Origin: Saccharopolyspora ipomoeae
Lineage (GTDB): Bacteria > Actinomycetota > Actinomycetes > Mycobacteriales > Pseudonocardiaceae
Length of the DNA: 64,000 nt
Assembly (NCBI RefSeq): GCF_029952525.1
Contig: NZ_JASAOF010000002.1
Span: 372,001-436,000, forward strand
Direction: 5' to 3'
Positions within the stretch are counted from its first letter, which is position 1. The number at the start of each line of letters is the position of its first letter. Shown here piece after piece: positions 47,208 to 51,256 of this stretch. The notes beneath the pieces were generated by a model, which was given only the letters and a program-made list of their open reading frames with translations, ran no database searches and was not told the DNA's origin. Both the position numbers and the translations under genes were made by a program.

Positions 47208-47852
47208 GTGGCCACCACTCCTCTGCGCGTCTACGGCGGCGTGACGGGCTCGGACCGCCAGGCCGAGCGCCGCGCACTGTTCCTCGAAGCCGGGCTGGAA
47301 CTGCTCGGCTCCCCCGACGGCGACCCGAGCCTGACGGTGCGCGGGGTCTGCCGCCAGGCAGGGCTGGCCAACCGCTACTTCTACGAGAACTTCACCGACC
47401 GCGACGAGCTCGCCACCGCGGTCTACGACCACGTGGTCAACGAGATCGCCACCACCGCCCTGGACGCCGTGACCGTCGTCGATGACGCCGAGATGAAGGT
47501 GCGCACCGGACTGGCCACCATCGTGCGGCTCATCGCCGCGGATCCCCGGCGCGGCCGGCTGCTGTTCTCCCCGTTCCTGGCCGGAACACCGCTCGCGCAC
47601 CGGCGCACCGAGTCCACCCGCCTGTTCACCCAGCTGCTGGGCACCCAGGCCCGCCAGGTCTACGGCGTGCAGGGCGGTGCGCGGCTGGAGCTGCTGTCGA
47701 GCTTCCTGGTCGGCGGGCTGGCCCAGACGTTGACCGCGTGGCTGGACGGCGACCTGGCCGCCTCCGAGACCGAGATCGTCGAGTGGTGCAGCGAGATCTT
47801 CCTGGCCACCTCCGAGCTTCCGCAACGACCGCGAGACGGGAGAGCACCGTGA
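47208..47852 (+). CDS. TetR family transcriptional regulator
   Basis: A 214-residue regulator with the HTH at about 17-65 (ALFLEAGLELLGSP, LTVRGVCRQAGLANRYFYENFTDRDELATAVYDHV). The RYFYENF recognition helix belongs to the AcrR-like subset. GTG 47208 sits after GGCCGG with no strong ribosome site. Its TGA overlaps the CoA-transferase GTG by 4 bases. It probably represses itself, the CoA transferase and the divergent MpaB-like gene through the dyad at 47145-47166. Confidence 0.9.
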   Translation: MATTPLRVYGGVTGSDRQAERRALFLEAGLELLGSPDGDPSLTVRGVCRQAGLANRYFYENFTDRDELATAVYDHVVNEIATTALDAVTVVDDAEMKVRTGLATIVRLIAADPRRGRLLFSPFLAGTPLAHRRTESTRLFTQLLGTQARQVYGVQGGARLELLSSFLVGGLAQTLTAWLDGDLAASETEIVEWCSEIFLATSELPQRPRDGRAP

Positions 47853-49315
47853 CGCTGACCGACCGGATCACCGAGGCCGTGGCAGCACCCCGCACCGACG
47901 ACGCCTTCGACGCCCACGCCGAGTTCGCCGAGGTGCTGGCCGGGATCGGGATGAGCCCGTCGGACACCGGCGGTCAGGTCCGGTTCCTCGGCGCCGACCC
48001 GGTGGTGCCCAGCACCCTGCGACTCGGTGGCGCGGCGGCGATCACCCTCGCGGCGAAGTCGGCCGCGATCGCGCGCCTGTGGCGGCTGCGCGGTGGCGAG
48101 GGTCAGGACATCGAGACCGACCTGCGGGTGGCTCCGCACCGGCTGTGCCCGTTCTACGACCGCAGGTGGGAGCTGCTCAACGGCTATCCCGGCGCCGGGG
48201 ATTCCAACCAGGCCTTGGGCTTTCGCTTCTACCCCACCGCCGACGAGCGGTGGGTGATGCCGCTCAACCCGTACCCGAAGATCAAGGCCGGGGCGCAGAA
48301 GCTGCTCGACGTGCCCGAGGACTCGGCGTCGGTGGCGGCGGCCATCGCCGGGTGGAAGGGACGTGATCTCGAAGAGGCCGGTGCCGAGGCGGGTGTGGTG
48401 ATGCCGCTGCTGCGCCGCCCCGAGGAGATCCTGGCCGAACCGCAGTACCGCGACCACTTCGCCGAGATGCCGCTGGTGGAGATCGAGCGCATCGGCGACG
48501 CCGAGCCCGAGCCGCTGCCGCCGGGCGTCGAGCAGCCTCTCTCGGGCATCCGCGCGCTGGGCATGGGCCACGTCATCGCCGGGGCCGGGACGGGCCGGGC
48601 GATGGCGCTGCACGGCGCCGACGTGCTGAACCTGTGGCGGCCGGGCGAGTTCGAGCACGAGGGCGCCTACATGAGCGCCAACGTCGGCGTGCGCTCGGCG
48701 ACGGTGGATCCCCGCGCGCACCAGGCGAAGGTGGCCGAGCTGCTGGCGGGCGCGGACGTGTTCTACGCCAACCGGCGTCCCGGCTACCTGGCCTCGATCG
48801 GGCTGTCACCGGAGGAGGCCGCGCAGATGCGGCCGGGGATCGTGCACGCGACGACGACGCTCAACGGCGAGCGCGGGCCGTGGGCCGACCGGGTCGGTTT
48901 CGACCAGACGGCGGGCAGTCTCGTCGGGATGATGGACCTGGAGGGCGACGGCACCACTCCGAAGCTCTCGCCGATCCTGGTGGTCAACGACTACATCGTG
49001 TCGTGGCTGCTCACCGCCGGGGTCGTCGCGGCCCTGACGCGGCGGGCCACCGAGGGCGGCAGCTGGCGGGTGCACGTCTCGCTGACCCGCGCGGCGCTGT
49101 GGATCCTGAGCCTGGGCGTGTTCGACCAGGCCTACGCCGCGGAGACTGCCGATCGCGGCGAGCAGCACCGCTACCTCGATCCCGAGACCTTCACCGCGGA
49201 CACGCCCCTCGGCCGCTACCAGGGCGTCACCGACCAGGTCCGCATGTCGGCAACCCCGGGCCACTACCGCCACGTCCTCCTCCCCCGAGGCGCCTCCCGC
49301 CCAGCATGGCTCTAG
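47849..49315 (+). CDS. CaiB/BaiF (family III) CoA-transferase-like protein
   Basis: A 488-residue diverged family III CoA transferase. From about residue 235 the CaiB pattern is clear: PLSGIRALGMGHVIAGAGTGRAMALHGADVLNL, ANVGVRSATVDPR, ADVFYANRRPGYLASIGLSPEE and GFDQTAGSLVGMM. The first 220 residues are a longer, weakly conserved half including LRLGGAAAITLAAKSAAIARLWRLRGG. Family members transfer CoA between organic acids. I could not place the catalytic Asp confidently. GTG 47849 overlaps the tetR stop (GTGA). Last gene before the inverted-repeat island. Confidence 0.85.
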   Translation: MTLTDRITEAVAAPRTDDAFDAHAEFAEVLAGIGMSPSDTGGQVRFLGADPVVPSTLRLGGAAAITLAAKSAAIARLWRLRGGEGQDIETDLRVAPHRLCPFYDRRWELLNGYPGAGDSNQALGFRFYPTADERWVMPLNPYPKIKAGAQKLLDVPEDSASVAAAIAGWKGRDLEEAGAEAGVVMPLLRRPEEILAEPQYRDHFAEMPLVEIERIGDAEPEPLPPGVEQPLSGIRALGMGHVIAGAGTGRAMALHGADVLNLWRPGEFEHEGAYMSANVGVRSATVDPRAHQAKVAELLAGADVFYANRRPGYLASIGLSPEEAAQMRPGIVHATTTLNGERGPWADRVGFDQTAGSLVGMMDLEGDGTTPKLSPILVVNDYIVSWLLTAGVVAALTRRATEGGSWRVHVSLTRAALWILSLGVFDQAYAAETADRGEQHRYLDPETFTADTPLGRYQGVTDQVRMSATPGHYRHVLLPRGASRPAWL

Positions 49316-49327
49316 GACGTTCCGAAA

Positions 49328-49550
49328 GAAACGCGACCAAAACGACCCAAGCTTCGGTAAACGCGACCCACTACGGGTACGTTTCGAAAGGCAGGGGAAA
49401 TTTCGTTCGAAATTGGCGGACCGCACACGCAAGAAACCCCCAAGACGAAGCCAATTTCGGACGAAATTGCCCCTCCGCGCCCACCCGAAGCACCCCGCGA
49501 AGCGCTCCCAAGGCGCCCCCGAGGGGGTGGGACAGTTTTCATGAAAACTG
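49328..49550. repeat. Left arm (223 bases) of the large inverted repeat
   Basis: The sequence pairs with the reverse complement of 49646-49868 over its whole length with no net gap. Its outer 58 bases (49328-49385) match about 52 of 58 positions. The inner part includes long identical runs such as GACCGCACACGCAAGAAA and GCGAAGCGCTCCC. Nested palindromes lie at 49399-49414 (AATTTC-GTTC-GAAATT), 49452-49469 (CAATTTC-GGAC-GAAATTG) and 49533-49550 (CAGTTTTCATGAAAACTG). Confidence 0.9.
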
Positions 49551-49615
49551 TGTCACTCCACCCACAAGACGGAACCCCAAAACCCCAGTTCAACCACCTC
49601 GAGAACCCTGGAGTC

Positions 49616-49643
49616 CACCCCACAGAGAGACCCCGTGGGGTGG
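49616..49643. repeat. Small inverted repeat in the spacer of the large inverted repeat
   Basis: CACCCCAC and GTGGGGTG flank about 11 bases within the 95-base spacer (49551-49645). The right half is also the flank of the TTTTCATGAAAA palindrome, as in the copies at 19964 and 57475. Confidence 0.6.
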
Positions 49644-49645
49644 GA

Positions 49646-49868
49646 CAGTTTTCATGAAAACTGCACCACCTCCACGGGGGTCTTCGGGAGCGCTTCGCGG
49701 GGTCGAGCTGCTTGCGTGCGGAGTGACAATTTCTCCAGAAATTGGCTGCGTTTCGTGGTTTTCTTGCGTGTGCGGTCTGCCAATTTCAGAAGAAATTGCC
49801 ACTGCCTTTCGAAACGTACCCGTAGTGGGTCGCGTCTACTAAAGCTTGCGTCGTCTTGGTCGCGTTCC
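49646..49868. repeat. Right arm (223 bases) of the large inverted repeat
   Basis: Reverse complement of the left arm. Nested palindromes lie at 49646-49663 (CAGTTTTCATGAAAACTG), 49727-49744 (CAATTTC-TCCA-GAAATTG) and 49781-49798 (CAATTTC-AGAA-GAAATTG). The stems are kept in both arms while the 4-base loops differ. Confidence 0.9.
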
Positions 49869-49945
49869 TAGCGAAACGTACCCGTAGTGGGTCGCGTCTA
49901 CCAAAGCTTGGGTCATCCTGGTCGCGTTCCTTTTGAAACGTATCC
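49811..49945. repeat. Tandem repeat with 62-base period, two full copies and one partial
   Basis: Copies at 49811-49868 and 49873-49930 (each 58 bases plus a 4-base joiner) start GAAACGTACCCGTAGTGGGT and end GGTCGCGTTCC; a third begins at 49935 (GAAACGTATCCC) and breaks off at the TRAP gene stop codon (49946). One inverted copy forms the outer end of the left arm at 49328-49385. Each unit contains ACCC-GTAGT-GGGT and a HindIII-like AAGCTT dyad. Confidence 0.9.
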
Positions 49946-51256
49946 CTAGGTGATGAGGCTCGGGAGGTAGGTAGCTGTGCCGGGGACGGCGATCATGAGG
50001 AGGATGAGGGCGAACTCGATCGCCAGGTAGGGGGCGATGCCGCGGAAGACGTCACCGAGGTCGAGTTCGGGGACCACCGATTTCATCGTGTAGAGGTTCA
50101 GGCCGACCGGCGGCGTGATCACCGCCATCTCCAGGTTGACCACCAGCAGCACGCCGAACCACAGCGGGTCGAAGCCGAGCTCCTCGATCGCGGGCACCAG
50201 GATCGGGGTGACCACCAGCAGCAGCGAGGCCGCGTCGACCAGGCACCCGAGCAGCACCAGCACCAGCATGATGCCGATCAGCACCACGTGGGGATGCACG
50301 TCGAGGCCGACGACGAAGTCGGTGAGCGTCTCGGGAACCCGCGCCACGACGAGCATCTGCGTGAACACGAACGCCGAGCCGACGATGGCCAGCATCGCCG
50401 CCGAGACCGTCGCGGTGGAGGCGAAGATGAGCTTGAGGTTGGCCCAGCCCAACTTCCGGTACACCAGGCCGGTCATGGCCAGCGCCAGCAGCGCGCCGAT
50501 CGCCGCGGCCTCGGTGGGCGTGGCGAAACCGGTGTAGATCGACCCCAGCACCAGGGCGATCAGCACCAGCGCCGGTGTGATCTTGCCTAGCGCGGCCCAG
50601 CGCTCCCGCCAGCCGAAGTGCTCGCCGTCGCGAGGCGCGCTGCCGGGGTTGAGCTTCGCGCGCACCACCACGTAACCGATCATGAGCAGCGCGAGCAGCA
50701 GGCCGGGCACGATGCCCCCGGCGAACAGCGAGGCGACGCTCTCGCCGGTCACCGAGGCGTAGAGGATGAACATGAGGCTCGGCGGGATCAGCATAGCCAG
50801 CGCCCCGGACGCGGCGACCGATCCGGCGGCGAAGCCCGGCTTGTAGCCGCGCGAGAGCATCTCGGGCACGGCCATCCGCCCGATCAGCGCCACCGAGGAG
50901 ATGCTGACGCCGGACATGGCGCCGAACAGCGTCGAGGACGCGATCGCCGAGGCCCCGAGCCCGCCGGGCACGCGGGTGAACCAGCGGTGCGCGGCGCCGA
51001 ACAGGTCGCGCCCGAGCCCGGTGACGGCCAGCGCCTCGCCGAGCAGGATGTAGAGCGGCGCGGCGACCAGCGCGTACTCCTGCAGCTGGGCGCCCATCGC
51101 CAGCGGTACGAGCTTGAGCCCGTCGAACCCGGACAGGCACAGCAGCCCGGTGATGCCGGAGACCGACAGGGCGATGAAGATCGGCGTGCGGGCCGCGATG
51201 AGCACCAGCAGCAGGGCGACCGCCAGCGCCACGACCAGACCGTCGGAGAGGATCAC
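49946..51256 (-). CDS. dctM: TRAP transporter large permease subunit (DctM type)
   Basis: A 436-residue polytopic membrane protein with about 12 helices, the ion-coupled transport subunit of a TRAP carboxylate/sulfonate importer. Typical stretches: LLGEALAVTGLGRDLFGAAHRW, STLFGAMSGVSISSVALIGRMAVPEM (about 112-137), LIPPSLMFILYA, ATPTEAAAIGAL and VITPPVGLNLYTMK near the C-terminus. GTG 51256 has GGAGGT 5 bases upstream and overlaps the dctQ stop by 4 bases. The stop codon abuts the outermost partial copy of the 62-base repeat. Confidence 0.93.
   Translation of the reverse strand: MILSDGLVVALAVALLLVLIAARTPIFIALSVSGITGLLCLSGFDGLKLVPLAMGAQLQEYALVAAPLYILLGEALAVTGLGRDLFGAAHRWFTRVPGGLGASAIASSTLFGAMSGVSISSVALIGRMAVPEMLSRGYKPGFAAGSVAASGALAMLIPPSLMFILYASVTGESVASLFAGGIVPGLLLALLMIGYVVVRAKLNPGSAPRDGEHFGWRERWAALGKITPALVLIALVLGSIYTGFATPTEAAAIGALLALAMTGLVYRKLGWANLKLIFASTATVSAAMLAIVGSAFVFTQMLVVARVPETLTDFVVGLDVHPHVVLIGIMLVLVLLGCLVDAASLLLVVTPILVPAIEELGFDPLWFGVLLVVNLEMAVITPPVGLNLYTMKSVVPELDLGDVFRGIAPYLAIEFALILLMIAVPGTATYLPSLIT

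What the first reader, a model, noticed from the sequence alone, without database searches (positions are those of the whole stretch)
49328..49930. Large inverted repeat: two 223-base arms with no net gap around a 95-base spacer
49328-49550 pairs with the reverse complement of 49646-49868 over its full length, in a 630-base non-coding island between convergent genes. The outer 58 bases match about 52 of 58 by hand count; further inside are long identical runs. Equal arm lengths after this much divergence suggest selection on the folded structure or a single inversion/duplication event. There is no transposase. It may be a non-autonomous element, a protein-loading site, or a source of long hairpin RNA.
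Basis: seen in the sequence. Interest (0 to 1): 0.82.

Follow-up and report, generated by a model that had tools for sequence, protein, structure and literature searches.

The report
Multicopy foldback mobile element, no transposase
The large inverted repeat is one copy of a small, gene-less jumping-DNA element that has spread between genes in this Saccharopolyspora bacterium and its close relative S. flava, sometimes landing inside other short palindromic repeats.

Summary
The inverted repeat is real: arms 171/223 identical ungapped; 3,000 same-geometry controls reached at most 0.44. It is not a local accident. The 630-bp unit (49316-49945) is one of 9 copy segments found in this genome and of 18 loci examined in Saccharopolyspora flava; the other 98 of 100 related genomes gave no match. 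It lies between CTAG repeats that hold the stop codons of both convergent genes; S. flava has it at the same site. Another S. flava copy lies between CTAA repeats inside a hairpin of a second repeat family, uninterrupted in this genome.

Best reading: a non-autonomous MITE-like foldback element, probably moved in trans by a YTAR-duplicating, IS5-type transposase; no source was found here. The two arms barely co-vary, so selection on one long hairpin is not supported. Each arm has a local hairpin with paired changes.

It carries two copies of a palindrome with 159 sites here, nearly confined to these two species (3 of 390 family genomes). Those palindromes form arrays with preferred spacings, mostly at gene 3' ends, which remain unexplained.

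The parts
49316..49945 (.). the repeated element as a unit (630 bp)
   Evidence: bounded by CTAG/CTAG; the same unit at other loci of this genome and of S. flava; occupied orthologous site in S. flava with the same flanks
49312..49315 (.). left copy of the 4-bp repeat CTAG; includes the TAG stop of the CoA-transferase gene
   Evidence: sequence; same junction in S. flava
49946..49949 (.). right copy of CTAG; includes the stop codon (CTA on +) of the DctM gene
   Evidence: sequence; CTAGGTGATG also at this gene end in congeners G007 and G010, which lack the element there
49317..49483 (+). left arm, outer part, pairs with 49713-49879 (84%)
49713..49879 (-). right arm, outer part
49805..49928 (-). 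two tandem copies of the 62-bp terminal module
   Evidence: the number of modules varies between copies
49390..49480 (+). left-arm hairpin (AATTTC..GAAATT pair), 19 contiguous pairs predicted on +
   Evidence: z -5.05 on +, -3.27 on -, raw energies nearly equal (-39.9 and -40.3 kcal/mol); covariation
49716..49806 (-). right-arm hairpin, more stable on the - (inward) strand
   Evidence: z -5.86 and -35.6 kcal/mol on -, z -2.80 and -32.0 on +; covariation
49524..49559 (.). palindrome 1, core ACAGTTTTCATGAAAACTGT at 49532-49551
49637..49680 (.). palindrome 2, core ACAGTTTTCATGAAAACTGC at 49645-49664; 113 bp from palindrome 1
47849..49315 (+). CoA-transferase family III gene (PF02515), converging on the element
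49946..51256 (-). TRAP transporter DctM gene (PF06808), converging on the element

Best explanation
The inverted repeat is one copy of a non-autonomous, MITE-like foldback element with terminal inverted modules of about 62 bp that vary in number, two arm hairpins and two central palindromes. SHOWN: it is multi-copy; it was found in only two of 100 related genomes; at the clearest sites it lies between 4-bp repeats CTAG, TTAG or CTAA; two copies lie inside a hairpin of another dispersed repeat; S. flava has it at this same site. FOLLOWS FROM THAT: it entered here before the two species split, and the doubled CTAG leaves both convergent genes a stop codon. INFERRED: a DDE transposase of IS5 type (YTAR duplication) recognised the GGRTACGTTTC ends in trans; that enzyme was not found in this genome (my odds for this step about 0.45). 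INFERRED: the arm hairpins, read inward from the two genes, now act as terminators or mRNA 3' ends, which would help explain why most copies sit at gene 3' ends (about 0.35). The confidence given is for 'MITE-like mobile element' as such.
For: Multi-copy: 9 segments here (five near-full, one half, one hairpin only, two at contig ends) and 18 loci examined in S. flava. Restricted: 2 of 100 relatives at E 1e-8; a 20-base pattern in genome-contig hit 19 stretches, 18 in S. flava and one in Vibrio europaeus (own genome may be left out there). Two-sided 4-bp repeats: here (CTAG, also in S. flava), C22:197k (TTAG), S. flava C8:66k (CTAA). Right-hand junction at a YTAR in 9 of 28 segments, three of them only if the element's last C is counted. 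Seven orthologous loci: 4 occupied in both species (one pair as partial copies), 3 only in S. flava. Internal spacing nearly constant while terminal modules vary. Context of 25 classifiable loci: 15 convergent, 9 tandem, 1 divergent (my own simple gene caller).
Against: No autonomous parent: PF01609 has 0 matches in this genome and 5 in S. flava, none with this terminus in the 1.5-kb flanks held, some cut by contig ends; other DDE families were not searched; the 22-base terminus, up to 3 mismatches, occurs here 12 times, at known copies only (S. flava not scanned). In 19 of 28 segments no YTAR was recognised at the right junction and many ends are eroded. No live transposition was observed. 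Wobble evidence for an RNA role rests on about four columns, and the central palindromes show none (GT 124, AC 162).
Confidence: 0.77

Rival explanations
1. A host-maintained structural site: the whole arm-to-arm hairpin (DNA cruciform or long RNA) is what selection keeps, e.g. as a protein-loading site or a source of long hairpin RNA.
For: Very stable predicted fold (-390.9 kcal/mol, z -26 against 20 shuffles); equal arm lengths; within-copy arm identity slightly above cross-copy (0.808 vs 0.802, permutation 0.010).
Against: The excess is 0.6 points; left arms resemble left arms (0.875) and right arms right arms (0.913) of other copies more than the opposite arm of the same copy. Three of seven loci compared differ in occupancy between the two species.
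Confidence: 0.08
2. A REP/BIME-like composite: the palindromes are the real units, and the long inverted repeat is a mosaic built from them that serves mainly as a bidirectional transcription terminator or mRNA 3'-end stabiliser. This overlaps with the best explanation as regards function.
For: 159 sites of the palindrome in the genome, many in arrays; in 1.26 Mb tiled from contigs C11 and C22 they fall in 20 of 135 convergent, 14 of 409 tandem and 0 of 193 divergent spacers; arm hairpins show paired changes.
Against: The unit is repeated as a whole with nearly constant geometry; no U-rich tail of a classical terminator (by eye); no RAYT-type transposase (PF01797: 0 matches in this genome, S. 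flava and G001). In the larger, repeat-chosen sample 7 of 163 palindromes were called divergent.
Confidence: 0.3
3. A single local inverted duplication, or an assembly artefact at a repeat.
For: Two contig ends of this assembly lie inside copies (C17 end, C42 start).
Against: The copy here is internal to a 662-kb contig and occupied at the same site in a separate S. flava assembly; many other copies.
Confidence: 0.01

Closest known systems
Bacterial MITEs in general (review PMC10969869: start of the abstract in the listing, and a term search that found no actino-, Streptomyces, Mycobacterium, Saccharopolyspora, nested or CTAG in its text)
   Same: short, no coding capacity seen, inverted terminal repeats, dispersed, short target duplication (definition recalled)
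   Different: arms span nearly the whole element; no related autonomous element found; terminal modules vary in number
BrickBuilt MITE of Porphyromonas gingivalis (PMC4596501, outline and abstract seen)
   Same: a species-restricted intergenic MITE that contains tandem repeats
   Different: BrickBuilt has a 23-nt tandem repeat between leader and tail; here 62-bp modules form the inverted ends and the interior is a symmetric set of hairpins
Insertion sequences that target REP palindromes (Tobes and Pareja 2006, PMC1525189, abstract and passages seen)
   Same: mobile DNA inserting into dispersed extragenic palindromes; IS5 is among the five families named
   Different: here the mobile unit has no transposase and the palindromic target is a Saccharopolyspora repeat
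IS5 target choice (YTAR duplication, PMC10359306, passages seen)
   Same: 4-bp YTAR duplication
   Different: no transposase of this kind found in this genome with PF01609
GTAG/CGTC REPs (PMC3733652, passages seen)
   Same: small palindromes in high copy, predominantly in convergent and unidirectional spacers; CGTC REPs also lack a dedicated transposase
   Different: no such end tags seen by eye in the CATG palindromes; arrays have preferred spacings with weakly similar spacers

Membership tests
MITE | short, non-coding | tested here: met
   630 bp; the ORFs there run in from a flanking gene or are short; module number varies between copies and 62 is not a multiple of 3
MITE | terminal inverted repeats | tested here: met
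MITE | target-site duplication | tested here: met
   two-sided 4-bp repeats at three loci; not recognised at most other copies
MITE | dispersed copies, with presence/absence between relatives | tested here: met
   the one uninterrupted hairpin has a left flank that differs by about 0.75 kb
MITE | shares ends with an autonomous element | tested here: not met
   no such element in this genome by terminus pattern or PF01609; it may be lost or lie outside what was searched
IS5-mobilised element | YTAR target duplication | tested here: met
   CTAG, TTAG, CTAA at three loci
IS5-mobilised element | matching transposase present | tested here: not met
   PF01609: 0 in this genome; other DDE models not tested
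REP/REPIN with RAYT | IS200-like tyrosine transposase | tested here: not met
   PF01797 in 1 of 8 genomes (G010, which lacks the palindrome) and in none of the three repeat carriers among them
REP/REPIN with RAYT | GTAG or CGTC end tag | not tested
   only looked at by eye
Bidirectional terminator | ends both convergent transcripts | not testable with these tools
   no expression data

The most novel reading that the evidence does not exclude
The element is one carrier of a genome-wide system of TTTTCATGAAAA palindromes, abundant in only two of 390 family genomes (one stray hit in a third), set at preferred distances (37-38, 45-46, 67-69, 73-75, about 111 bp) with weakly similar spacers and rare in divergent spacers. 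If spacing itself is selected, the palindromes would be sites for an unknown protein that binds cooperatively at gene 3' ends, seeded in pairs 109-113 bp apart by this foldback element.
Probability: 0.15. Interest if true: 0.78.

Novelty: new variant of a known kind. Interest (0 to 1): 0.5.

Why it matters
It turns an isolated hairpin into a traceable mobile family: two close species, shared and species-specific insertions, and nesting in another repeat's hairpin. That makes S. flava and its relative a test bed for how transposase-less elements and palindromic arrays arise and are kept at gene 3' ends in actinomycetes. The preferred-spacing palindrome arrays, abundant in only two species, are the part a specialist would not expect.

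Tried and rejected
Long-hairpin selection: tested by within-copy versus cross-copy arm identity and largely rejected (21 of 28 segments used, the rest too partial; one motif position was set by hand in two of the 21). RNA wobble bias in the central palindromes: none (GT 124, AC 162). RAYT: none in the carriers. Autonomous parent by terminus: none. Plasmid or phage origin: no match at E 1e-5. Rfam: one sub-threshold hit, MIR8565, 57.1 bits against a gathering score of 136, E 2.3e-9, taken as a chance match to a long hairpin. tRNA-linked insertion: no tRNA in the window. A decayed palindrome in the 74-bp spacers: looked for by eye in a few, none seen, not tested. A tree of 21 copies was poorly resolved (2 of 18 inner branches well supported).

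Literature: I found no paper on this repeat. Searches: Saccharopolyspora + palindromic + repetitive + intergenic (3 listed, none opened); MITE + actinobacteria + inverted repeat + IS5 + non-autonomous; REP sequences and IS hot spots (7 listed, 1 opened in part); Saccharopolyspora flava (12 listed, none opened); MITE and YTAR (101 papers, 15 listed, 3 opened in part); REP/RAYT/actinobacteria (4 listed, 1 opened in part); Saccharopolyspora + miniature inverted; palindromic + convergent genes + terminator + Streptomyces (3 listed, one of them the paper opened).

Full report
OBSERVATION. The arms 49328-49550 and 49646-49868 are complementary at 171/223 positions without gaps, and with 185 identities, 37 mismatches and one 1-base gap in each arm when aligned; the outer 58 bases match 52/58. 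3,000 same-geometry pairs from the window average 0.295 and reach at most 0.439. No other inverted repeat listed for the window comes close among pairs up to 1 kb apart (25 longest of 33 shown). The true unit is 49316-49945, 630 bp, between CTAG at 49312-49315 and CTAG at 49946-49949.

ANATOMY. From outside in: a 62-bp terminal module (once at the left; twice plus a short end at the right), an arm hairpin made of two AATTTC....GAAATT palindromes 54 bp apart, a 28-bp paired block, and a palindrome with core CAGTTTTCATGAAAACTG; then the mirror image. The two central palindromes are 113 bp apart. The flanking genes encode a CoA-transferase (PF02515) and the DctM part of a TRAP transporter (PF06808). 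Their stop codons lie in the two CTAG copies.

COPIES. The window lies in contig C22 of a 6.63-Mb genome. In the stretches I examined there are 9 copy segments in that genome (five near-full with this one, one half copy, one arm hairpin only, two at contig ends) and 18 loci in G015 (16 near-full, one partial, one interrupted by an assembly gap); 28 segments in all, because the gapped locus counts twice. G015 is taken to be Saccharopolyspora flava DSM 44771 because seven contig lengths agree. Of 100 related genomes searched at E 1e-8, five candidates scored in each, only these two match. A 20-base pattern with one degenerate position, searched in 84,980 species' genomes, hit 19 stretches, 18 in S. 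flava and one in Vibrio europaeus, probably chance; the tool warns that the window's own genome may be left out. There was no match among 72,556 plasmid and 50,697 phage records. In the near-full copies the AATTTC pairs are 54-56 bp and the central palindromes 109-113 bp apart, while the number of terminal modules varies.

INSERTION. S. flava has the element at the same place, with CTAG on both sides and more terminal modules; its centre is an N run in that assembly. Congener G007 has only about 54 bp between the two genes, G001 about 324 bp with a different repeat, G010 about 522 bp of other sequence. A second copy here (C22:197k) lies between TTAG repeats inside another repeat, called family 2 below. 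The S. flava copy C8:66k splits the hairpin GGACAGTTTTCA[CTAA]AACTGTCC; in this genome the corresponding hairpin is uninterrupted, GGACAGTTCTCACTGGAACCGTCC, and its right flank agrees, but left of the hairpin this genome has about 0.75 kb, with a gene, that S. flava lacks. So this is good but not perfect evidence of an unoccupied site. Right-hand junctions fall at a YTAR in 9 of 28 segments, three of them only if the element's last C is counted; in the other 19 none was recognised. Of seven orthologous loci compared, four are occupied in both species (one pair as partial copies) and three only in S. flava; the sample is weighted towards S. flava copies, and two near-full copies of this genome had no counterpart among the stretches held. 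At one of the three (C11:228.6k here) the spacer carries four CATG palindromes and a family-2 repeat instead.

DO THE ARMS FOLD UNDER SELECTION? Across 21 near-full copies, left arms average 0.875 identity to each other, right arms 0.913, left to right within a copy 0.808 and between copies 0.802 (permutation 0.010). So the arms diverged before the element spread and have barely tracked each other since; the slight excess may be occasional arm-to-arm conversion. Inside each arm the picture differs: over 42 arms the hairpin keeps pairing through changes on both sides (G-C 20 / T-A 21 in one pair, G-C 14 / T-A 28 in another), with T-G wobbles on the strand read inward from the genes. Predicted folds agree for the right hairpin (-35.6 kcal/mol inward, -32.0 outward); for the left one only the z-score favours the inward strand (-5.05 against -3.27), the raw energies being nearly equal. 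Few columns carry the wobble signal, so it is suggestive only.

THE WIDER REPEAT SYSTEM. The central palindrome has 159 sites in this genome at up to 3 mismatches in 20. With up to one mismatch in 18 it occurs 108 times here, 155 in S. flava, once in one other genome and not in the other 387 of 390 family genomes. In 1.26 Mb tiled from contigs C11 and C22, the window included, it lies in 20 of 135 convergent, 14 of 409 tandem and 0 of 193 divergent spacers of 30 bp or more; of 79 sites, 4 called genic and 5 at stretch edges were set aside. Fisher: 7e-8 for convergent against the rest, 3e-5 for divergent against the rest. In the larger sample, chosen for repeats and including S. flava, 163 sites were 95 convergent, 48 tandem, 7 divergent and 13 other. 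Gene calls are from my own simple caller. Neighbouring palindromes prefer distances of 37-38, 45-46, 67-69 and 73-75 bp: 60 of 85 spacings under 100 bp; these bins were chosen after seeing the histogram, and the top three single values hold 38, never reached in 20,000 uniform draws, a crude control. The S. flava sample is small: it has a few spacings of 37, 46, 74 and 75 but also 58 and 70. Inner parts of equal-length spacers are weakly alike (0.37-0.48 against 0.28-0.30 shuffled, four length classes), and two of the four 74-bp spacers are plainly related, so descent from a few composite units is not excluded. Arrays such as 37-74-37 and 46-67-46 give 111-113 bp between every second palindrome, close to the distance inside the long element. 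Array sizes can differ between the two species at the same locus (5 against 2, L033/L097) or agree (3 and 3, L034/L099).

MECHANISM. Shown: whole-unit repetition, 4-bp repeats at the clearest junctions, occupancy of this site in both species, differing numbers of terminal modules. Inferred: a YTAR-duplicating DDE transposase acting in trans. PF01609 finds none here and five in S. flava without this terminus; PF01797 finds none in the carriers; the terminus occurs here only at known copies. The family may be stranded without its enzyme. Inferred: the arm hairpins serve as 3' ends of the convergent transcripts.

COMPARISON. It fits the MITE definition except for the missing autonomous partner. 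It resembles BrickBuilt (PMC4596501, outline and abstract) in carrying tandem repeats, and REP-targeting ISs (PMC1525189, abstract and passages) in using hairpins as targets. YTAR as the IS5 motif is from PMC10359306 (passages). The CATG palindromes resemble REPs in place and number (PMC3733652, passages) but no RAYT was found in the carriers.

Noticed in passing
genome-wide; in the window also at about 19975 and 57488: TTTTCATGAAAA palindrome arrays with preferred neighbour distances (37-38, 45-46, 67-69, 73-75 bp) and weakly similar spacers, abundant in only two of 390 family genomes
   Followed up: partly
L142:2144-2236 and many places: A second dispersed repeat (starts CAGGGGACAGTTTTAGTGAAAACTGTCC, ends AAAACTGTCCCCTG, about 80-93 bp), also in a third congener (G001); at least two long elements lie inside copies of it
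   Followed up: partly
L089 (G015 C14:137.9-138.3k): Terminal 62-bp modules expanded in tandem to about six copies at one end of an S. flava element (match list)
   Followed up: no
L130 (G015 C7:112k): A hybrid hairpin that mixes the AATTTC arm motif with the CAGTTTTAG motif of the second repeat family
   Followed up: no
window 49484-49707, - strand: Sub-threshold Rfam hit MIR8565 (57.1 bits, gathering 136), presumably a chance match to a long hairpin
   Followed up: no
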